64,000 nucleotides of DNA from Peromyscus leucopus (taxonomy: Eukaryota; Chordata; Mammalia; Rodentia; Cricetidae), in assembly GCF_004664715.2 (NCBI RefSeq), contig NC_051075.1:30028504-30092503 (forward strand). Reading direction: 5' to 3'. Both the position numbers and the translations under genes were made by a program. The notes under the pieces are model-generated. The model was not told the origin of the DNA. It ran no database searches and saw only the letters and a program-made list of their open reading frames with translations. Position 1 is the stretch's first letter. Each line of letters opens with the position of its first letter. Of this stretch, positions 5,845 to 52,792 are shown piece by piece.

Positions 5845-6328
5845 TGTGGTGATATTGTGTTCCCTAATATATTGTGTACCCTAATAAACTTATCTGGGGT
5901 CAGAGAACAGAACAGCCACTAGATATAGAGGCCAGAAAATGGTAGCACACACATCTTTAATCCTAGTATTCCAAAGGCAGAGATCCGTCTGGATCTCTAT
6001 GAGTTCAAAGCCACACTGGAAACAGCCAGGCATGGTGACACATGCCTTTAATCCCGGGAAGTGATAGCAGGAATCAGAAAGATATATAAGGCATGAGAAC
6101 CAGGAACTAGAGCCTCTTTTAAGCTTTTAGGCTTTTGAGCAGCAGTTTAGCTGAGATCCTTCGGATGAGGACTCAGAGGCTTTTAGTCTGAGAAACAAGA
6201 TCGGCTGAGGAATTGGCAAGGTGAGGTCAGCTGTGGCCTGTTCTTTTTCTCTGATATTTCAGCATTCACCCCAATACCTGGCTCCACGTTTGTTTTTATT
6301 AATAAGACCATTTAAGCTTCATGTTACA
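5845..6328 (+). mobile_element. Solo LTR, ERV family 1 (mys/MYSERV-like)
   Basis: 484 bp from TGTGGTGATATTG to GTTACA, flanked by GAAATA (5839-5844) and GAAGTA (6329-6334), a 6-bp TSD with one mismatch. It is the same family as the LTRs of the composite ERV (13714-14247, 22443-23007) and the copies at 32299-32745 and 52274-52792. The U3 contains B1-like sequence ('cacatctttaatcctag', 'tggatctctatgagttcaa'), then a 'atatataagg' TATA-like box, then R-U5. The downstream flank (about 6338-6355) faintly resembles a lysine-tRNA primer site, so a little internal sequence might remain. The family name is a guess. Confidence 0.88.
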
Positions 6329-13707: not shown

Positions 13708-13713
13708 CAAAGT
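13708..13713. other. Putative left TSD of the composite ERV (CAAAGT)
   Basis: The six bases directly outside LTR A. The six bases outside LTR B are CAAAGA, matching at 5 of 6 positions. Perfect 6-bp duplications flank family-1 solo LTRs elsewhere in the window. Confidence 0.5.
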
Positions 13714-14247
13714 TGTGACATGAATTGCAAAGCAGTCTTATTAATAAAAAGCCAGGATCCAGATATTGGGGTGAACATTGAAAGATCATAAAAAAATAGA
13801 ACAAGCCACAGCCAATTTCACCTCACCAACTCCTCAGGCAATCCTGTTTCCACAAATCCTCAGACTGAAAGCCTCTGAGTCCTCACTCCTGAGTGTCGCA
13901 GTTGAACTGCTTAAAAGGTCTATAGTTCCTGGTCCTGACACCTTATATTCCTTTCTGCTTCCTGCTATCCCATTCTGGGATTAACGGCACGTGTCCTTCC
14001 CAAGCAAAGACATGAGATCTCAAGTGCTGGATTAAAGGTATATACCACCACACCTGCCTCTGTTCCCAGTGTGGCCTTGAACTCACAGAGATCCAGATAG
14101 ATCTCTGCCTCCTGAGTGATAGGATTAAAGGTGTGTGCCACCGGTGTCTGACCTCTATGTCTCATTTAGTCGCTGGCTCTGTTTTCTGATTCCCAGACGA
14201 GTTTATTAGGGTGCACAATATATTGGGGGATACAATATATCACCACA
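13714..14247 (-). mobile_element. 3'LTR of arm A, family 1
   Basis: 534 bp. In minus orientation it begins TGTGGTGATATATTG next to a polypurine tract and ends GTCACA. U3 holds B1-like units; 'ggaatataagg' is the TATA-like box; R-U5 follows. A stretch of 79 bases (13819-13897) is identical to the inverted copy in LTR B (22821-22899), although the flanking LTR sequence differs between the two. Confidence 0.9.
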
Positions 14248-14260
14248 TTTCCCTTATTTG
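14248..14260 (-). promoter_or_regulatory. Polypurine tract of arm A
   Basis: On the minus strand, AAATAAGGGAAA lies immediately before the LTR start. This is the expected plus-strand primer of a retrovirus and it fixes which LTR edge is the U3 edge. Confidence 0.75.
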
Positions 14261-14494
14261 CCTAAAATTAAAAAGTTATAACTTATAAAAGAAAAACAAT
14301 ATATAATATGTACAAAAGTATATACAATATATACAGTCAAGAATTATATTAACAATGTCCAGTCCATTAATATTTGAAAATTCAGACAAAAAATTAATCA
14401 TTTATCAAATCTTAGTGAGCCTAATACAAAATTTGCATACAATGTAAAAAAAAAACCATTTCAATGTAAAGTATTTAAAACAAGTAGTTCTACT

Positions 14495-14660
14495 GCCGGG
14501 CGTTGGTGGCGCACGCCTTTAATCCCAGCACTCGGGAGGCAGAGCCAGGCGGATCTCTGTGAGTTCGAGGCCAGCCTGGGCTACCAAGTGAGCTCCAGGA
14601 AAGGCGCAAAGCTACACAGAGAAACCCTGTCTCGAAAAACCAAAAAAAAAAAAAAAAAAA
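14495..14660 (+). repeat. B1 SINE, young, with TSD
   Basis: Full-length B1 beginning GCCGGGCG, with 'ggaaaggcgcaaagctac' in the 3' half and ending in an A-rich tail. It is flanked by (A)AGTAGTTCT on both sides (about 14482-14491 and 14660-14669). The 'aaggcgcaaagc' 3' half is what I associate with cricetid B1. It is inserted in the non-coding 3' region of arm A, so it postdates the provirus. Confidence 0.95.
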
Positions 14661-14669
14661 AGTAGTTCT

Positions 14670-15533
14670 TTTTAAAAGTTGATTCAATATTCTACCATTT
14701 TATTTTATCATATCCATATTCTCTCTTTTGTCTTTTCAGAGTAGATTCAATAATCTACCCTTTATCTTATCATTTCTCTATCTTTTTTTCAGAGCAGATT
14801 CAATAACCTACCTTTTATCTAAATCCCCTTTACTTTTTTTTTTCAAACAATAACCTTGAATTTAATCTCGTTTGTTTAGCCTTTTTCCTGACTGTTAACA
14901 ATAATAACTTGTAACCAACCATCCTAAACAATGACAATTTTTCCAAAACCCACTGAATGATCAAAAACCACTCACCATACCTCTTGGGAATGTGGGTGTC
15001 GTGGTTTTAAAATAACTTCCTGCTGTCTGGGGGCAAAGTTGTCTTTAGGGGATCCTGAGAAGAAAAAATTGGGGTTAATTGTCAATTCCTGGGAAAGATA
15101 GCCATATTATTTGTTGTCCAGTCTTTGAATAATGTAAAAGTACAGGGTTTATCTCAATTCATTGCTCCAATAGTTTGTGAGGCTGGATCATCTCAGCTAG
15201 CCATCTCAAAATTATCCTGAGCAGTTTGTAGTCCAAAGCCAATCTTTGGGTGGTGTTTGTCATCCTAGTAGTATTATCATTGTCCTGATGGAATCATTGT
15301 TGTGGGGCCCCATAATCTTTTGGGAGACTTCAAATTTGCCATTAGGCCTGGTCATGATTCCCTGCAGAAAAATAATAGAGACTCAAACACAAAAACATGT
15401 ACAGGCTTCTAGATGAAGCCTTTTTTCTAGAATTAGTTAGTACTCTATATGACCATTAATATCATGACAAAAGTTTAATATGCACATTACATTATAAATT
15501 TTGATATAAAATTTATACCTTAAGGAAAGTTTT
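14670..15533 (-). other. Non-coding 3' region of arm A
   Basis: Homologous, in inverted orientation, to 21541-22430 of arm B. For example, the complement of 15180-15275 corresponds to 21660-21750 ('gacaaacaccacccaaag', 'gagatggctaactgagatg'). It carries a repeated hairpin unit at 14690-14815. No env gene is recognisable, so this family may lack env or carry a badly decayed one. Confidence 0.75.
14690..14815 (-). repeat. Three tandem hairpin units, arm A
   Basis: Complement copies of the arm B unit: about 14690-14707 (two stem mismatches), 14741-14758 (perfect) and 14794-14811. In the third, two stem bases differ, but both changes leave G-U pairs possible in RNA. Position relative to the polypurine tract is the same as in arm B. 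Confidence 0.8.
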
Positions 15534-16048
15534 CATTCATCATGGTATCTCCCTCCTGGTTCTCCCATGAGAGAGAGAAGGGATTGTATGAGGAGAGATT
15601 TTGAGATCATGATTGGAAAAAGCACAAGGACAAATAGCCAAACTAGTGGAATAGATGAACTGTGAACCAATGGCTGAGGAGCCTCATGGAACTGGACCAG
15701 GTTCTCTGGATAAGTGAGACAGTTGATTAGCTTGAACTGTTTGGGAGGCCTCCAGGGAGTGGAGCCGGGACCTGTCCTTGGTGCATGGGCTGGCTTTTTG
15801 GAGCCTGGGGCCTATACTGAGACACTTTGCTCAGCCTTGGTGTAGGAAGGAGGGGATTAGACCTGCCTTGGCTGAGTCTACCAGGCTGAGCTAATTCCCC
15901 AGGGGAGACCTTGCCTTGGAGGAGGTGGGAATGGGGGGTGGGTTGGGGGTAGGGAGGCTGGGGGTAGGAGGAGGGAGGATGGGTAAATCCATGGCTGATA
16001 TGTGAAATTAAGTTAATTATAAAATAAAATTTAAAAAAAACAAAAAAA
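15534..16048 (+). mobile_element. 5'-truncated L1 3' end
   Basis: L1 3'UTR sharing long stretches with the copy at 33295-33760: 'gtgagacagttgattagctt', 'ggacctgtccttggtgcatg', 'ggctgatatgtgaaatta' and a terminal A-rich tail after 'aattataaaataaaat'. Probable target duplication GAAAGTTTT (15525-15533) and GAAAAGTTTT (16049-16058). It is inserted in arm A between integrase and the 3' region. Confidence 0.9.
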
Positions 16049-16059
16049 GAAAAGTTTTA

Positions 16060-16790
16060 AGGAATCAAAATAGAACTAAATAATTATGAGATTAGTGGCA
16101 ATAGAATAGTCCCTTAATTTTGCTTTTCTTCTGTCCCATATCAGATGGCTCTTCTGATATGATACAGAGAGTTTGCATTTTCTTTTTGACAAACATGCCT
16201 GGGTTTAGAGAAGGAAAGAGGCATTCTCCAACTCTAAAGCCAACTTTAATATTAGTTGAAGTGGGACTACATAAAGACCATTTGTGTTAAGTGTCTGTAG
16301 AGAATGGCAGAAACAAATATTTATGAAGAACTATGAAAATTTATATGTGATATATCAATAGGTCAATTTACTCTTATTTTTGGAACATTTTTTTTTCTGG
16401 ATGATTCGTCCTTTTTCTTCAGATGTCTCATTTGTCCAGTATTATTCAGATTCCTTAGCCTTCATTTTCCTGAAAGATGAAAACAAAAACCCTTCCTTAA
16501 CTCTAACTTTGGAGGTTCCCTTTTGGCAAGTTATATCTGATTAAATGAAAAGCATTTGTTAGTTGTATAAATTAATTTAAATTGAATGTTCATTCTGGTT
16601 CACGAACTATCATCTCTTCTAAATAAGAGGTCTCTCTTGTTCAAATCAAACCTTTATCAATTTTGATGTTATCCATACCTTTTTTTTTCTCTTGTAGAAA
16701 CAAAAGCAAACCCCATCCCCAACATAACACATATCCTGGTTTCCATTATGAGATCAGCACATCTTTAAAGTATATAGGCTGATTTAATTC
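16060..16790 (-). other. Arm A sequence between integrase and L1, no recognisable gene
   Basis: Continuation of the provirus beyond the integrase frame. It would hold the integrase C-terminus and any env start, but stops are dense and I cannot identify a domain. Confidence 0.45.
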
Positions 16791-16794
16791 TATA

Positions 16795-17490
16795 GTTTTA
16801 TTCTATTATCCAATGTCTCTCTGCAGCTGTTGTTGTTTTCTCATTAGCATTGGGAAAATTAAAAGTTAATAGAGCATTATATAATCTATTTCTCAGGGGA
16901 TTTGTTATCCCTTTCTGTTTATTTAACATATCCTTTAGAGTTTGATTTGATCTTTCTATGACTGCTTGGCTTGTACAATTGTGAGATATACCTGTAATGT
17001 GTTTTATATTATAATAAGCAAAAAAAAAAAGTTTCATTTTACCAGAGACATATGCTAGAGCATTGTCAGTTTCAATTTGTGCAGTTATACCCATGATGGC
17101 CATAACTTCAAGCAAATGCATGATGACAGAATCAGCCTTTTCAGAACTCAGAGCAGTTGCCCATTGAAATCATGAAAAGGTATCAATACTGTGGTGTACA
17201 TATTTTAGTTTTCCAAATTCTGCAAAATGAAACATATCCATATGCCAGATTTCATTCCTCTGAGTACCCTTTGGTTCACATCCTCCTGGTAGTAGAGTCT
17301 GATTGTAAAAGAACAAATAGGACATTTACTTATAATTTTCTTGGCTTGTTGACAGGTTAAACCCTTACTATTGACATGATGTTTTTGTATGAAATTCTGA
17401 GGCCTCCAAAATATTCCCATCAATAGTTTACTGATCTCATCATTACCTTGTGTGCTTTTAGGATATTTGTTGTTAATCTCTCCCAAATAA
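16795..17490 (-). pseudogene. pol: ERV integrase (pol), decayed
   Basis: Class II (betaretrovirus-like) integrase in two frames. The N-terminal part (17205-17486) shows the zinc-binding region with 'KHHVNSKGL' and the Cys pair 'CPIC'. The core (16798-17121) shows the second catalytic aspartate in 'IETDNALAYV', then 'NIKHITGI', and the catalytic glutamate in 'AVIERSNQTLK', followed by 'ALLTFNFPNANE'. I count 36 residues between D and E, one more than the usual 35, at a short Phe run coded by an A-rich tract. The frame shifts between the two parts, and the first catalytic aspartate falls in the broken stretch. Inactive. Confidence 0.9.
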
Positions 17491-18170
17491 TTACTGCAAG
17501 CTCTTTGCCAAGATTCACTTTCTGCCCATTATTTGTCAATTTCATCCTTAGTTAAAGGTGCTACAATTTCTGCTGCTTGTATTTCTGCTAATTGATGAAG
17601 TCCCAATTTTCCTCTTAAAATCAACTCAGAGATCTTTTCTGCATAAGTTTTCAATTTTTTTACTCTGTTTATTTGGTAAAAATACCCATTCCAATATAGT
17701 ATCTTCCCTCTGCATTAAAATTCCTGTAGGTAAATTCTTAGAGGGTAAAAAAAAAGAAATTTAATCAAGCTTTGGATCCACATGATCCATATATGCATCC
17801 CATATTTTCTTTTCCATCAAAGCCAATTTTCTCTCAGCTTCAGCTGATAATTCTCTAGGACAATTTAAGTTATTGTCATCCTCTAAGGTTTTGAACAAAT
17901 TACTCAGTTCATTATTTTTTACCCCAACAGAAGTCTGTAGATAAAAAATGTTTTCAAATAAATATTGAAAGTTATTAGTAGTACATAATTGATCTCTCCT
18001 AATTTGTACCTTTTGGGGTCTAATTTTTGTAGACTTATTTTATATCCTAAATAATTAATAGAATCTTAGAATCTCCTTTTTGTCTCTTTTCAGGAGCAAA
18101 TTGTAATTCTCAACAAGGCATTTTTTTTTAACTTCTTCAAATATTTTTTCTTAAGGTAACTATATTTGAA
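17490..18170 (-). pseudogene. ERV pol connection/RNase H region, heavily decayed
   Basis: Lies between reverse transcriptase and integrase on the minus strand, where RNase H belongs. No long frame remains and I cannot point to its catalytic residues. The assignment is by position only. Confidence 0.5.
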
Positions 18171-18174
18171 TAAG

Positions 18175-18560
18175 CTAGTAAAATATTGTCCACGTAATGA
18201 TAAATTATATATTCAAAAATTGTCTACCAATTACTTCCAATGGCTGTCATACATATTGGTACAGGGTTGTACTCTTTAACATTCACTGTGGGAGAACCCT
18301 CCATTGATATCTCTTAACTAGCTGAGAATTATTACAAGTAGGCACCATGAAGGCAATTTTTCTCTGTCTTTTTTTTTTTTTTTTTTTTGTAAGGGTATTG
18401 AGCAGAAACAGTTTTTTTAAATCAATAACTATAATAGGCCATCCTTTAGATAACAGAGTAGGCAAAGGAATTCCAGATTGTAGAGAACCCATTGGCTGAA
18501 TCACCTTATTAATTGCTCTTACATCTGTTACCATTCTCCACTTACCAGATTTCTTTTTAA
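18175..18560 (-). pseudogene. pol: ERV reverse transcriptase, decayed
   Basis: The minus frame 18283-18534 begins 'MVTDVRAINKVIQPMGSLQ', then 'PLPTLLSKGWPIIVIDLK' (the first catalytic aspartate in a VIDLK context), and ends 'KRYQWRVLPQ' before a stop. About 90 bases further, in another frame, the YXDD box reads YVDN at 18185-18196, so the last catalytic aspartate is lost. An A-run insertion (T21 on the plus strand, 18369-18389) sits inside the domain. Typical class II ERV reverse transcriptase. No activity is expected. Confidence 0.9.
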
Positions 18561-18859
18561 TAACAAATGAAGGAGAATTCTAAGGGCTGGTTGATTCTTC
18601 AATATGCTGAGCATTTGACTGATCTTGTACCAGCTCTTCCAAGACCTGCAGTTTCTGAACCCATACAGGCTTGTCTGTTAATCATTTTAAAGGTAGAGCT
18701 GTTGATATCTTTGAAAGATCAGCAGCTGTTGTGCCAGGTTCTTGTATAATATGGATGTCTGGTGACTCTTCTCTATAGTATCTTCTAATATTTCTCTCAG
18801 AAACATGTGCTAGTTTATGGTTTGTTTCTCAGGTTGGAGAAATGTTAATCTGGCTATTC

Positions 18860-19140
18860 CATTGTTGTCATAGATCACAGCACCATAAATTCATAGCTAT
18901 ATTAGCCACATATGGCTTTAATTTTCCACTCTGTCCTTTTGGCCCTATACATTCATGCCATCTTGTTCTCTGTTTCACTTGAGATAATTCTACAATCCCT
19001 AACAGCTCAACATTGACCTCCCTGAAGAAGCCAATTTGGATACCCTGGTTCTGATGCAATTATTATTACATCCACACATGTGTCTACAAGACCCTCCATG
19101 AGAATGCCATTTATTTGTATTTTTAATTTTAATCTTTGCT
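18860..19140 (-). pseudogene. pro: ERV protease, decayed
   Basis: In one minus-strand reading the active-site triplet is DTC in the context 'GLVDTCVDVIIIAS' (19076-19084), where aspartic proteases have DTG. After a stop, the frame at 18868-19059 reads 'IVELSQVKQRTRWHECIGP', then 'KLKPYVANIAMNLW', the usual protease C-terminal half leading to reverse transcriptase. No dUTPase domain is seen between nucleocapsid and protease. Confidence 0.85.
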
Positions 19141-19182
19141 CATTTATAGAAGTTTGCCATTGTTCCTTGAAGAAACATTGTT

Positions 19183-19422
19183 TCAAGGAATGCCCTGCTT
19201 ATAGTCCCTTTTTAGGTGGCCTTGTTTACCACAATTAAAGCATCTGACATTATTATTTTTCTTCAAATCTCTTGAAATCACCTCTCCTATCCACATGTCA
19301 TTATGGTCTTGAAACTCAATGTTAATTGTGTCCCCAATCCAATCCTCCAAGGATGTTGATCTTGCCTTTAATGGCCTAATTACCCTTTTGCATGATGCAT
19401 TAGCATTCTCAAAAGCCAGAGA
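19183..19422 (-). pseudogene. gag: ERV gag: capsid C-terminus and nucleocapsid
   Basis: Minus frame with 'LAFENANASCKRVIRPLKAR', the end of capsid, followed by a zinc knuckle 'CFNCGKQGHLKRDYKQG'. The knuckle should be C-x2-C-x4-H-x4-C, but the last cysteine is tyrosine. The longer open frame running to 19569 extends into a later LTR insertion and its first part is not viral coding sequence. Protease follows directly. Confidence 0.9.
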
Positions 19423-19817
19423 TGTAGCTTGAAGTTTTCCTGTGTCCCAGCCTGCTGGCTGTTGGGAAAAATCTCTCTCAATCACATCCCCCAAGTAAAT
19501 ACAGAGGCTTATATTACTTATGAACTGTATGACCATTAGCTCAGCCTTATTACTGACTACTTCTTGCACTTAAATTAACCCATATTTCTTATTTTTGTTT
19601 AACCATGTGGCTTGGTACCTTTTCTCAGTTCTGTCTTGTCATCTTGCCTCCTCTGTGTCTGGCTGGCAACTTCTGATTTAGCCTTTATCTTCCCAGCATT
19701 CTCCTTGTCTGTTTATCCCACCTGTACTTTCTTCCTGGATACTGGCCAATCAGTATTTTATTTATCAACTGCTTAGAGCAACACACATTCACAGCATATA
19801 GAAAGATATCTCCATCA
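19423..19817 (-). mobile_element. Solo LTR (family 2) inserted in gag, perfect TSD
   Basis: 395 bp. On the plus strand it begins TGTAGCTTG and ends CCATCA, so both strands show TG...CA termini. It is flanked by the perfect 6-bp duplication CAGAGA (19417-19422 and 19818-19823). It splits capsid: 'NSEAR' is coded on one side and 'LAFENAN' on the other. Same family as 12745-13067. It must be younger than arm A. Confidence 0.93.
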
Positions 19818-20450
19818 CAGAGATTCTAGCTTCTGAATTTGTTATTACTCTGTTTATTGCTGAAGACATCCTTTGTAAGAAATCAGTGAAAGTTTCTTTT
19901 AGACCTTGTGTAACTTTTTTAAATGACCCAATTTTGTTCCCTATTTCTTCAGTTCTGTTCCACACATTCATGGCTGCCATGTAGCATAGTATTAGGGTGT
20001 GGTCATCATATAAAGATTGTCTTTGTATATCAGCATAATTGACTTCTCCAAGAAGTTAATCCTGGGAAATTTCCATAATCTAGCCCTACATCATTGTTCT
20101 ATAGTCTTATCATCCTCTTTCCGCCAGGTTCTCCACTGTAATTGTGGTCTGGCCTCTAGAATAGCTGTAACCAAATCTTTCCAGTCCTGAGGGATAATTC
20201 TGCTACAAGTTGACCATGAGTTTAACATCTGCTTTATAAATGGAGAATGCATACCATATGAGACTTGCAGCTTCTTCAAATCTCTTCAAATCTAATATTC
20301 CCACTGGAACCCAGTTAGCTTGTACACAGCCTTGAGCATTTGGCAGTTCCTATAATGTTATCAGATAGATGAAGTTTGGTTGTTTGACAATAACCTGTTT
20401 CTCTGTACCCATAATATTCAAGGCTGAGATAGGTTCACCTTTAAGTTTTT
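19818..20450 (-). pseudogene. gag: ERV gag: capsid, decayed
   Basis: Two minus frames cover capsid. 20091-20279 reads 'SYGMHSPFIKQMLNSWSTC' and 'RIIPQDWKDLVTAILEARPQ'. 19789-19980 reads 'GSFKKVTQGLKETFTDFLQR', which includes the major homology region, and ends 'NSEAR' at the LTR insertion. Upstream, about 20280-20345 still reads as capsid ('NWVPVGILDLKRF') with a frame change. The sequence stops being gag-like near 20450, where plus-strand LTR begins; matrix, leader and 5'LTR of arm A are missing. Confidence 0.9.
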
Positions 20451-20474
20451 CTGTCTATGTTTGAATATCTCTAT

Positions 20475-20641
20475 AGGACTCGGAGGCTTTCATTCTGAGG
20501 ATTCATAGAAACAGAATAGGCTGAAGAGTTGATGTTGTGAGGTTGGCTATGGCTTGTTCCATTTCTCTGATCTCTCAGCATCCACCACAATATCTGGCTT
20601 CAGACTTTTTATTAATAAGACTCTTTAGCATTCATGTTACA
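20475..20641 (+). mobile_element. Partial 5'LTR (R-U5) of arm B, family 1
   Basis: Matches the right-hand part of the family-1 LTR: 'ggactcggaggctttcattc', 'ttggctatggcttgttcc', 'ttattaataagactc' and the end 'ttcatgttaca'. All of U3 is absent. The first matching base lies about where R should begin, roughly 40 bases downstream of the TATA-like box in the full LTRs. It is more diverged from LTR A and LTR B than those are from each other in this part. Confidence 0.85.
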
Positions 20642-20643
20642 TC

Positions 20644-20661
20644 TGACACCCAACATTTGTG
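20644..20661 (+). promoter_or_regulatory. Primer-binding site, lysine-tRNA type
   Basis: Two bases after the LTR end comes TGACACCCAAC..., which matches the start of a lysine-tRNA primer site (TGGCGCCCAAC) at 9 of 11 positions; both differences are G-to-A changes. It marks the 5' end of a plus-strand retroviral genome and shows that arm B points right. Confidence 0.8.
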
Positions 20662-20734
20662 GCACAAATTCATGAAAAACCACTTACCCATTGCCTTGAA
20701 GTGCCCAGCTGAGGCCTGAGCTGCATGAAGCCAG

Positions 20735-20812
20735 TTGTAGTGACTCATGCCAGTAGGATTTGCTGAAGGAGGTGGAGGCAGAAGGATCCTGAGTTTGAGG
20801 CCAGCCTTACAG
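20735..20812 (+). repeat. B1-like fragment in the arm B leader
   Basis: 'gtagtgactcatgccagtag', 'ggaggtggaggcagaagga' and 'tgagtttgaggccagcc' follow a B1 body with a deletion. It sits between the primer-binding site and the TGFBR1 5'UTR. It may have been captured with the host mRNA or inserted separately. Confidence 0.6.
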
Positions 20813-20814
20813 GC

Positions 20815-21495
20815 TTGCTGAGGAGAAGCTCCAGCTGAGGCCAAGCAGGGCCACAAATGGTGGCAGCAGGACAAAGAGGCCAAGGCTGCTGCTCCAAGTT
20901 GTTGGTTGCTTCTCATCCTGTTGATGTTGGTGACACTGCTACCAGGGATAAAGGGTTTACAGCTGTTTGTTCAGAGAACACTTGCCAGGATCATCATGTT
21001 AGAAGAGAGTATTGGCAAAAGTCATTTTGGAGAAGTTTGTCAAGGCAGGTGTTGGGGAGAAGTTGCTGTGAAGATATTCTCTTCTAAAGGAGAATGTCCA
21101 TGGTTCTGAGAGGCAGGGACTTATCAGACTGTGATGTTATGCCATGAAAACATCCTAGGGTTTATACCAGCAGACAACAAAGACAATGGCACAATGACTC
21201 AGCTGTGGTTGGTGTTGGATTACCATGAACATGGATCCCTTTTTTATTACTTGAATAGATGCACTGTTACAGTGGAGGGGATGATCAAACTCACTCTATC
21301 TTGGGCAAGTGATCTTGCCCATCTTCTCATGGATATTTTTGGTACCCAAGGAAAGCCATCAATTGCTCAGAGAGATTTGAATTGAAAAAATATCTTGGTG
21401 AAGAAGAATGGAACCTGTTGTATCGCAAAATTGGGACTGGCTGTGAAACACAATTCTACCACAAATACAATTGATGTTGCTCCAAACCACAGAGT
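20815..21495 (+). pseudogene. TGFBR1: Processed TGF-beta receptor type I (TGFBR1/ALK5) sequence, ectodomain deleted, inside ERV arm B
   Basis: Intronless copy of TGFBR1, a membrane serine/threonine kinase that phosphorylates SMAD2/3. A CpG-decayed 5'UTR (to 20872) precedes the start-codon position, now AAA (20873-20875). The signal-peptide region follows ('[13 protein letters not shown]', ending 'LQ', 20960), then directly '[19 protein letters not shown]' of the GS/kinase boundary. Ectodomain, membrane segment and the TTSGSGSG motif are missing. The kinase continues without frameshift: glycine loop 'GKSHFGEV', 'VAVK' lysine (21071-21073), '[13 protein letters not shown]', '[14 protein letters not shown]' (HRDLK changed to QRDLN), and DLG changed to KLG (21428-21436). 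It stops at 'APNHRV' (21495), so the kinase C-lobe is missing. In-frame stops are at 21107 and 21383. No poly(A) tail at the 3' break. No active product is expected. Confidence 0.93.
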
Positions 21496-21505
21496 AGACA
21501 CACAT

Positions 21506-21540
<35 letters not shown>
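21496..21540. repeat. (CA)n microsatellite at the TGFBR1/viral junction
   Basis: CA run of about 34 bases, preceded by looser 'acacacatgcacac', exactly between the last TGFBR1 base and the first base matching the viral 3' region. It probably grew from a short CA run at the recombination junction. Confidence 0.95.
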
Positions 21541-21542
<2 letters not shown>

Positions 21543-22430
21543 TTCTGCAGTGAACCATGACTGCCTAATAGCATCTTTGAAGTCTCCAAAGAGATGATGG
21601 GACTCCACAACAAGGATTGACAATTTCACATAGATTATGATAATACCAATAATCTGACAAACACCACCCAAAGATCAGTTTTGGACTACAAACTGACCAG
21701 GGTTATTTGAGATGGCTAACTGAGATGATCCAGCCTCACAGACTACTCAACCAAGGACTTGAGACAAGCCCTGTACTTCTGAATTATGCAATACCCATAT
21801 TCACAAAGAAGTGGGCTGGGTGGTTTTTAGTCATTCAGTGGGTTATGGATACTGTCATTGTTTAGGATGGGTGGTTATAAGTTGTTAACTGATAATGGTC
21901 AGGAAAAAAAAGCTACATAAAGAGATTAGATTCAGGGTTTTTGTTTGAAAAAAAGAAGAAAAAAGAAAACAAAGAGAATATAGATAAGAAGTAGATTATT
22001 GAATCTACTCTGAAAAAAAAGAAGAGATATAGAAACAAGATAAAAGGGTAGATTATTGAATTTACTCTGAAAAGAAAAAAGGGAAAGATATAAAAATGAT
22101 AAGATAAAAGGTATATTATTGCACTACTCTGAAAAGAAAAAAGAGATAATATAGATATGATAAGTTTAAAGAAAGGTAGATTATTGAATCTACTTTGAAA
22201 AGGTAACAACTAGTTTTAAATATTTTACATTGGAATGGATTTTTGTATATTGTATACAAATTTTGTATTGAACTCACCAAAATAGGATAAACAATGAAAA
22301 TTTTGTTTGAATTTGTCAAATGTTAATGGACTGGACATTGTTAATGTAATTCTTGACTGTATATAGTATATATATTGTACTTATTGTATATAGTTTTCTT
22401 ATGTTAGTTATAACTTTTTTATTTTACACA
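21541..22430 (+). other. Non-coding 3' region of arm B
   Basis: Begins 'atttctgcagtgaaccatga' and is collinear with the complement of arm A from about 15370 down to 14260, which proves it is viral rather than TGFBR1 3'UTR. It contains four repeated hairpin units (21991-22205) and AT-rich sequence up to the polypurine tract. No env-like frame is seen. Confidence 0.85.
21991..22205 (+). repeat. Four tandem units with a conserved hairpin, arm B
   Basis: Units of about 57-65 bases, each centred on GTAGATTATTGAATCTAC, which folds into a 7-bp stem with a 4-base loop. Copies: 21991-22008 (perfect), 22048-22065 (one stem change), 22111-22127 (degenerate), 22176-22193 (perfect). An A/G-rich stretch follows each. 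Arm A has three such units in complement (14690-14815). Confidence 0.85.
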
Positions 22431-22442
22431 AAAAAGGGGAAA
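22430..22442 (+). promoter_or_regulatory. Polypurine tract of arm B
   Basis: AAAAAAGGGGAAA ends immediately before the LTR start TGTGGTG. Expected plus-strand primer. Confidence 0.85.
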
Positions 22443-23007
22443 TGTGGTGATATATTGTGCACCTCAATATGCTGTTTATCCATGTGCCCTAACAGTGTAC
22501 CCTAATAATCTTATCTGGAGATCAGAGGACAGAGCCAGCAACTAGATTAGACATAGAGGCCAGACATTGGTGGCACACATGCCTTTAATTCTATCACTCA
22601 GGAGGCAAAGATCCATCTGGATCTCTGTTAGTTCAAGGCCATTCTGGGAATAGAGCCAGGCATGGGGACATACACCTTTAATTCCAGCACTTGAGATCTC
22701 ATGTCTTTGCTTGTGAAAGACACACACCTTTAATCCCAGGAAGTGATGGCAGGAAGAAGAAAGGTATATAAGGCATGAAGACTTATAAAAACTAGAGCTT
22801 TTTAGCAGCAGTTCAACTGAGACACTCAGGAGTGAGGACTCAGAGGCTTTCAGTCTGAGGATTTGTGGAAACAGGATTGCCTGAGGAGTTGGTGAGGTGT
22901 GGTTGGCTGTGGCTTGTTCTGTCTTTCTGATCTTTCAGTGTTCACCCCAATGTCTGGCTCCAGGATTTTTTTTTTATTAATAAGACCGGTTAGCAATTTG
23001 TCTCACA
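22443..23007 (+). mobile_element. 3'LTR of arm B, family 1
   Basis: 565 bp from TGTGGTGATATATTGTG to CTCACA. U3 contains three B1-like segments, each with a 'ctttaat' motif (near 22582, 22674 and 22728). A TATA-like 'tatataagg' lies at about 22765 and 'tataaaaac' at about 22787. R-U5 follows. It is longer than LTR A because of an extra segment near the U3 start. It ends at the putative duplication CAAAGA. Confidence 0.92.
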
Positions 23008-23013
23008 CAAAGA
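23008..23013. other. Putative right TSD of the composite ERV (CAAAGA)
   Basis: The six bases outside LTR B; five of six match CAAAGT outside LTR A. The LTR edge is set by aligning the last 15 bases of both LTRs, which have equal length and end CACA. Confidence 0.5.
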
Positions 23014-23061: not shown

Positions 23062-23140
23062 CTAAAAAAAAAAAAAAAAAAAAAAAACAAACAAACAAAC
23101 AACAAAAAATAAAAATAAAAAAAAAACAAGGTCATGAAAT
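23062..23140. repeat. A-rich low-complexity tract
   Basis: An A run of more than 20 bases followed by (AAAC)n-like and A-rich sequence. It could be the tail of a lost retroposon, but no body is recognisable in front of it. Confidence 0.8.
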
Positions 23141-52273: not shown

Positions 52274-52792
52274 TTTAGCAGGAATCTTAAAAGTTCTTAC
52301 TAATAAAATCAAACCCAGGTCAGTTATTGGGGTCCATGCTGGTAGATCAGAGACAGAACAAGCCACAGCTATCTCACCTTGCCGGATCCTCAGCTGGTCT
52401 TGTCTCCTCAGACTGGAGGCCTCTGAGTCCTCATCCGGAATGGGTCTCAGCTGAATTACTGCTCAAAAGCCTGAATGCTTAATCAGCCATATGCTTAACC
52501 AGCCAAATGCTTAACCAGCCAAATGCCTCTAGTTTCTGGTTCTCACGCCTTATATATCTTTCAGTTTTCTACCACCACTCCCTGGGATTAAAGGCTGGCT
52601 TTCTGGGATTAAATAGTCACCATGCTTGGCTATTTCCAATGTGGCCTTGAACTCACAGAGATCCAGAGGGATTTCTATCTCTGGAATGCTAGGATTAAAG
52701 GTGTGAGTGCCACCATTTTCTAGCCTTTGTATCTAGTGGCTGTCTGTTCTCTGACCCCAGATAAATTTATTAGAATACACAATACCACCACA
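52274..52792 (-). mobile_element. Solo LTR, family 1, perfect TSD
   Basis: 519 bp ending CACCACA on the plus strand, flanked by the perfect 6-bp duplication ATTGTG (52268-52273 and 52793-52798). The first base pair is TT rather than TG, a mutated terminus. 'gacctctatg'-type, 'gatctcag'-type and B1-like 'gggattaaa' units match the other family-1 LTRs. It has an extra short direct repeat ('aaccagccaaatgctt', 52488-52525). Confidence 0.92.

What the first reader, a model, noticed from the sequence alone, without database searches (positions are those of the whole stretch)
20475..23007. An endogenous retrovirus arm that appears to have captured a host TGF-beta receptor kinase mRNA
Seen: R-U5, primer-binding site, leader, TGFBR1 5'UTR plus coding sequence in sense orientation, then viral 3' region, polypurine tract and LTR. 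The TGFBR1 part keeps its 5' end, loses its 3' end and has no poly(A), the reverse of an L1-made processed pseudogene, which is normally 5'-truncated with a tail. Exon-exon junctions are spliced. Known: acutely transforming retroviruses carry spliced host kinase cDNAs in this place. Inference: this is a fossil host-gene transduction. I know of no described retroviral capture of TGFBR1.
Basis: partly seen in the sequence, partly recalled or inferred. Interest (0 to 1): 0.88.

Follow-up and report, generated by a model that had tools for sequence, protein, structure and literature searches.

The report
Endogenous retrovirus carrying TGFBR1 pieces
An old virus-like element in this genome swallowed a piece of a host growth-factor receptor mRNA, lost its own genes, and was then copied over a thousand times, at least one copy quite recently.

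Summary
Leader, TGFBR1 and viral 3' region follow in that order in 19 of 20 fetched loci, 9 of them with a sense LTR on both sides. A 27-base pattern over the exon 1/exon 4 joint hits 1,188 places, reversed control 0. The parent gene was found and read. The captured mRNA has about 62 nt of 5'UTR, exon 1 joined to exon 4 (exons 2 and 3 absent, frame kept), exons 4 to 6, and stops at the end of exon 6. Ahead of it lies what looks like rodent 4.5S(H) small RNA from its first base (sequence recalled). No gag-pro-pol was found in the element; a betaretrovirus-like relative with the same LTR and 3' region lies beside it. 49 places match the long form; the 49 other copies read carry a shorter TGFBR1 part, and one has two 527-bp LTRs that are 100% identical. 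Substitutions show no third-position excess, so no protein selection was detected. Best reading: one capture by reverse-transcriptase template switching, then amplification in trans as passenger sequence. The listed rows of ten paper searches show no report of it.

The parts
20475..20641 (+). R-U5 of the 5' LTR; U3 missing
   Evidence: 79% to window LTR positions 393-553
20644..20661 (+). primer-binding-site-like stretch (tRNA-Lys1,2 type by recall)
   Evidence: read; same site in L033 TGGCACCCAACGTTCGTG; PBS identity is recalled
20662..20729 (+). short leader
   Evidence: shared with other family copies
20730..20808 (+). 4.5S(H) RNA-like segment, nt 1 to about 78
   Evidence: 65/78 identical to the recalled 4.5SH sequence; recalled B1 matches only nt 40-80, 34/41; found in 28 of the 30 copies fetched with enough upstream sequence
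20811..20954 (+). TGFBR1 5'UTR (from about -62) and exon 1; start codon lost here
   Evidence: alignment to parent exon 1, L097
20955..21182 (+). TGFBR1 exon 4, joined directly to exon 1
   Evidence: parent exon 4 = L029
21183..21350 (+). TGFBR1 exon 5
   Evidence: parent exon 5 in L030
21351..21498 (+). TGFBR1 exon 6 to within its last bases
   Evidence: parent exon 6 in L030
21499..21541 (+). (CA)n microsatellite at the 3' joint
   Evidence: other copies have A-rich, (AAAT)n or no tract here
21542..22429 (+). viral 3' region, shared with the autonomous relative
   Evidence: matches within 14248-15370 on the - strand, 78-82%
22430..22442 (+). polypurine tract
22443..23007 (+). 3' LTR
   Evidence: TG...CA ends; matches LTRs of other copies
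13714..20474 (-). autonomous betaretrovirus-like relative: LTR, 3' region, decayed pol/pro/gag, head to head with the element
   Evidence: above Pfam cut-off: RVT_1 E 3.8e-10, Gag_p24_C E 4.7e-7, zinc knuckle; below it: integrase core, integrase zinc domain, protease; one of 7 pieces without a match; integrase piece closest to chains 5cz1/3jca, which I know as MMTV
23008..23013 (+). CAAAGA, candidate duplication of CAAAGT at 13708-13713 bounding the whole composite
   Evidence: 5 of 6 bases, by eye

Best explanation
A betaretrovirus-like ERV lineage captured host RNA once. During reverse transcription, minus-strand synthesis left the viral 3' region just above TTTTCTGCAGGG, continued on an exon-2/3-skipped TGFBR1 mRNA from the end of exon 6 to near its 5' end, then on a 4.5S(H)-like small RNA to its first base, then returned to the viral leader. 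This replaced gag, pro and pol but kept the LTRs, PBS, leader, 3' region and PPT, the sites needed in cis. The element then moved in trans on proteins of autonomous relatives. It split into a long form and a short form with 342 nt of TGFBR1 removed, and the short form has been active recently. Shown: the parts, shared junctions, copy number, duplications at some insertions, and no detectable codon-level constraint. Inferred: a single capture, the order of template switches, the trans mobilisation, and the passenger status of the TGFBR1 piece.
For: Leader-TGFBR1-3' region in 19 of 20 fetched loci, the exception (L022) having no TGFBR1 hit; a sense LTR on the 5' side in 12, on the 3' side in 15, on both in 9 (these 20 were among the best matches to the window, 40 of 21,730 candidates being scored). 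1,188 junction places, reversed control 0; 49 places with the exon 4/5 joint, control 0. Exon 1 ends at the parent's donor (GGAGG|GTGAGC) and exon 4 follows. In copies without a tract the 3' end lies at the last 0-2 bases of exon 6. 4.5SH-like segment in 28 of 30 testable copies, starting at nt 1-5 in 26. Short duplications flank whole elements: L011 and L012 6/6, L015 5/6, L036 5/6. L036 LTRs 100% identical over 527 bp. The neighbour encodes RT, integrase, capsid and zinc-knuckle pieces and shares the 3' region and LTR.
Against: The 3' break coincides with an exon end, which template switching alone does not predict. The A-rich tract at that joint in many copies could be a vestige of an A-tail. 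Duplications match 4/6 in L014 and not at all in L021. The 5' leader of an autonomous relative was never seen, so it is unknown whether the 4.5SH-like segment came with TGFBR1 or was already viral. [quoted passage not shown] No expression data.
Confidence: 0.72

Rival explanations
1. L1 made the insert: a 4.5SH-TGFBR1 chimeric retrogene with an A-tail landed in a provirus, and gag-pol was deleted later.
For: A-rich or (AAAT)n tract at the 3' joint in many copies; the small-RNA part starts at nt 1-5 in 26 of 28 copies, as in L1-made U6 chimeras (recalled).
Against: No TGFBR1 3' end: 1 of 130 listed matches, the parent's own exon 8, lies beyond query residue 200 (127 of 1,851 candidates scored). 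In 4 young copies the two flanks of the insert share no word longer than 4 bases, no more than shuffled ones. It needs a separate deletion of gag-pol.
Confidence: 0.15
2. Classical route: a provirus sat in TGFBR1 intron 6, and a TGFBR1-viral readthrough RNA spliced from exon 6 into a viral acceptor was packaged and recombined.
For: The capture ends at the end of exon 6; TTTTCTGCAG|GG looks like a 3' splice site.
Against: That site is kept unspliced after exon 6, and the one autonomous copy read has no AG directly ahead of it. The first 636 bases of the parent's intron 6, all that was read, hold no match to the LTRs, 3' region or autonomous relative. The pattern search for more autonomous copies did not complete.
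Confidence: 0.12
3. The captured piece works as a protein, for example a signal peptide plus kinase N-lobe that disturbs TGF-beta signalling.
For: 24 of 43 young copies have a frame of 105 or more codons from TGFBR1's own start codon, 8 of these running off the fetched piece, and the 342-nt deletion keeps the frame. Shared variants are fewer per site in the frame (0.219) than in the two flanks (0.440, 0.434), though the flank alignment is uneven.
Against: 19 of 43 have shorter frames. Variants do not favour third positions: long form 100/104/101 singletons and 53/54/51 shared; young copies 35/34/40 singletons and 27/18/18 shared, shared ones 15 synonymous, 45 nonsynonymous, 3 stops, near the neutral expectation; young branch 8 N, 5 S, 0 stops. 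No catalytic lobe.
Confidence: 0.06

Closest known systems
Crocodilian ERVs with captured KIT-ligand and nectin3 mRNA (PMC4299795; passages seen, some of them from its abstract)
   Same: Multi-copy ERVs carrying a host mRNA inside the provirus
   Different: KIT-ligand was captured without loss of an ERV domain and shows purifying selection, nectin3 stands in place of env; here gag-pro-pol is gone, the gene is cut short and no selection was detected
Non-autonomous mysTR-related ERVKs of the deer mouse (PMC10089650; abstract, section 7 and passages seen)
   Same: Abundant ERVK-like elements without coding genes whose interior was replaced, keeping homology between pol and the 3' LTR
   Different: Its main text has 0 hits for tgf, captur, kinase and chimer; whether one of its subfamilies is this one could not be tested
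ETn/MusD of the house mouse (as told in PMC10089650, section 7)
   Same: Non-autonomous class II element moved by a related autonomous one
   Different: Not described there as carrying a host mRNA
Acutely transforming retroviruses with v-onc kinases (recalled)
   Same: Spliced host kinase mRNA replacing viral genes
   Different: No complete kinase domain, a germline family of over a thousand copies, no sign of protein selection

Membership tests
class II (betaretrovirus-like, ERVK) LTR element | related RT, integrase and capsid in the autonomous partner | tested here: met
   RVT_1 E 3.8e-10; integrase piece to 5cz1 E 2e-21, its Pfam matches below cut-off; capsid piece to HERV-K capsid E 3.8e-6. 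Tested on the neighbour, since the element has none
class II (betaretrovirus-like, ERVK) LTR element | six-base target duplication | tested here: met
   by eye: 6/6 in L011 and L012, 5/6 in L015, 4/6 in L014, none in L021; 5/6 in L036
non-autonomous ERV | LTRs, PBS and PPT but no gag-pro-pol | tested here: met
   no match to the neighbour's gag-pol between leader and start of the 3' region in the 19 loci; both LTRs seen in 9 of 19
mysTR family | pro-pol close to mysTR | not testable with these tools
   no mysTR sequence at hand; Cantrell 2005 not held
acutely transforming retrovirus | intact host kinase or other coding domain | tested here: not met
   TGFBR1 exons 2 and 3 absent, nothing beyond exon 6 in listed matches
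L1 processed pseudogene | 3' end of the mRNA with poly(A) | tested here: not met
   ends at exon 6; an A-rich tract is present in many copies but not the mRNA's 3' end
L1 processed pseudogene | target duplications around the insert alone | tested here: not met
   4 young copies only: longest shared flank word 3-4 bases, shuffled mean 4.6-5.0

The most novel reading that the evidence does not exclude
One reverse-transcription event stitched a pol III small RNA (4.5S(H)) and an exon-skipped TGFBR1 mRNA between a viral leader and 3' end, making a three-way chimera that became a recently active mammalian family of over a thousand copies, many of which could still make a short TGFBR1-derived protein.
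Probability: 0.4. Interest if true: 0.75.

Novelty: new variant of a known kind. Interest (0 to 1): 0.62.

Why it matters
The nearest cases found are crocodilian. Here the junctions, the parent gene, an old long form and a young short form sit in one genome, so a capture can be traced base by base. It would also explain the origin of an abundant repeat, and suggests that a captured kinase piece can ride along without detectable selection.

Tried and rejected
Chance or tandem neighbours: rejected by the shared junctions. Separate later insertion of TGFBR1 into this one ERV: rejected for the same reason. Plain B1 in the leader: weaker than 4.5SH, both sequences recalled; a relative of the B1-like SINE from which 4.5SH arose is not excluded. 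Rfam search of the leader: no match at E up to 1 in the window and in L033. Protein selection: no signal. Dating: 8 of 23 loci gave a repeat pair, K2P 0.116-0.243; the L018 pair lies outside the expected LTR places and is doubtful, and the window pair rests on 156 bp. My notebook says 9 pairs and a 339-nt deletion; 8 and 342 are right. The pattern was meant for parent exon 1 but ran over the exon 1/2 joint and so hit only family copies among the places listed. Not done: other species, and the 5' leader of an autonomous copy.

Full report
What is in the window. From 20475 to 23007 the + strand holds R-U5, a PBS-like site, a short leader, a 4.5S(H)-like segment, TGFBR1 5'UTR with exons 1, 4, 5 and 6, a (CA)n tract, a viral 3' region, a PPT and a full LTR. 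Translated pieces match TGFBR1 in the PDB at E 2.4e-42, with the next receptor at 6.6e-27. Coordinates of the parts were read.

The parent gene. TGFBR1 lies at C2:58433660 (start codon) to at least C2:58487770 in the same genome; its exons 4, 5, 6 and 8 match the human protein at 95-98%. Exon 1 ends ..GGGGACGGAGG|GTGAGC. Exon 4 follows an acceptor AG. Exon 6 ends ..GGCACTAAAAG|GTACAC. In the 20 long-form copies read (19 loci and the window) exon 1 sequence runs straight into exon 4 (by eye). A stricter score passes 63 of 69 copies of all forms, but 43 of these 69 were chosen by an exact match to that joint; the six failures are five long-form copies, the window among them, and L031. Exons 2 and 3 are therefore absent; by recall they are multiples of three in length, and the joint is in frame.

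The 3' joint. Copies without a tract read ..CACTAAAA(G) then (A)TTTTCTGCAGGGAACCATGACC; others have (CA)n, (AAAT)n or runs of A between. 68 of 69 copies have the exon 6 tail and 67 of 69 have the viral sequence after it. Of 130 matches listed (127 of 1,851 candidates scored), one lies beyond query residue 200, and it is the parent's own exon.

The 5' joint. TGFBR1 homology starts about 62 bases before the start codon. Before it lies a segment 86% identical (70 of 81) to 4.5S(H) RNA nt 1-81 in L033. The 4.5SH sequence is recalled, and Rfam gave nothing. Passages of PMC7279448 give its length (94 nt), origin from a B1-like SINE and presence in four rodent families. It was found in 28 of the 30 copies fetched with enough upstream sequence; the misses are L031 and L032, and the other 39 of 69 were cut too short to tell.

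Copy number. Pattern hits, all with reversed control 0: exon 1/exon 4 in the family's form 1,188; a parent-like version of that joint 422; exon 4/exon 5 49, two of which share a variant and may be another gene; start-codon region 125, one of them the parent. Patterns with at most 2 or 3 mismatches undercount diverged copies.

Two forms. The long form keeps exons 4 to 6. The other 49 of 69 copies read lack exon 5, and 48 of them keep the exon 6 tail. Where the deletion was measured (L032, L033, L036) it is 342 nt, in frame. L036 has two 527-bp LTRs that are 100% identical. Long-form copies differ by K2P 0.144 on average (0.091-0.194). I convert none of these to years, because no rate was tested here.

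Selection. In 20 long copies, singleton differences from the parent fall 100/104/101 on codon positions and shared ones below 60% fall 53/54/51; those shared by 60% or more are 9 synonymous and 3 not, but include changes of the parent. In 43 young copies, chosen for an exact 27-base match, singletons fall 35/34/40 and shared ones 27/18/18; shared variants are fewer per site in the frame (0.219) than in the flanks (0.440 and 0.434), singletons less so (0.378 against 0.476 and 0.408), and the flank alignment is uneven. 24 of 43 have a frame of 105 or more codons from TGFBR1's start codon, which could be youth alone.

Partner and mobilisation. The neighbour at 13714-20474 on the - strand shares the LTR and 3' region and keeps RT, integrase, capsid and zinc-knuckle pieces. 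Whole elements are flanked by short duplications: 6/6 in L011 and L012, 5/6 in L015, 4/6 in L014, none in L021, 5/6 in L036, all by eye. Only 9 of the 19 TGFBR1-bearing loci still show a sense LTR on both sides; the rest are broken or rearranged.

What is new. Host-mRNA capture by ERVs is known (PMC4299795, passages), and so are non-autonomous ERVKs with a replaced interior (PMC10089650, section 7). PMC5086612 (passages) reports small non-coding RNAs such as 7SL and U6 enriched in virions, which fits a packaged small RNA, but no specific cellular mRNA enriched. Ten paper searches showed no paper on capture of TGFBR1 by an ERV among the 8 to 20 rows each listed; the library lacks most subscription papers, and no repeat database was at hand, so the repeat itself may well be catalogued.

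Noticed in passing
window 13708-23013: The autonomous relative and the TGFBR1 element lie head to head, gag directly against R, with candidate duplications CAAAGT/CAAAGA outside both LTR ends (5 of 6); this looks like one inverted composite integration.
   Followed up: partly
L009, L035, L028 (antisense pol/gag), L037, L023 (inverted U5 or R-U5), L016, L020 (sense gag), upstream of the leader: Odd 5' ends recur among the copies, with different break points; unexplained.
   Followed up: partly
window 23064-23130: An A-rich run starts about 57 bases after the LTR end; its origin is unclear.
   Followed up: no
L098-L100 and the pattern GGACCATGGAGGCAGCGG: A further set of copies shares a different start-codon region (125 hits with the parent); its structure was not read in full.
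   Followed up: partly
window 5858-6309 (+) and 52295-52780 (-): Two more LTR-like stretches at 68-69% to the window LTR.
   Followed up: no
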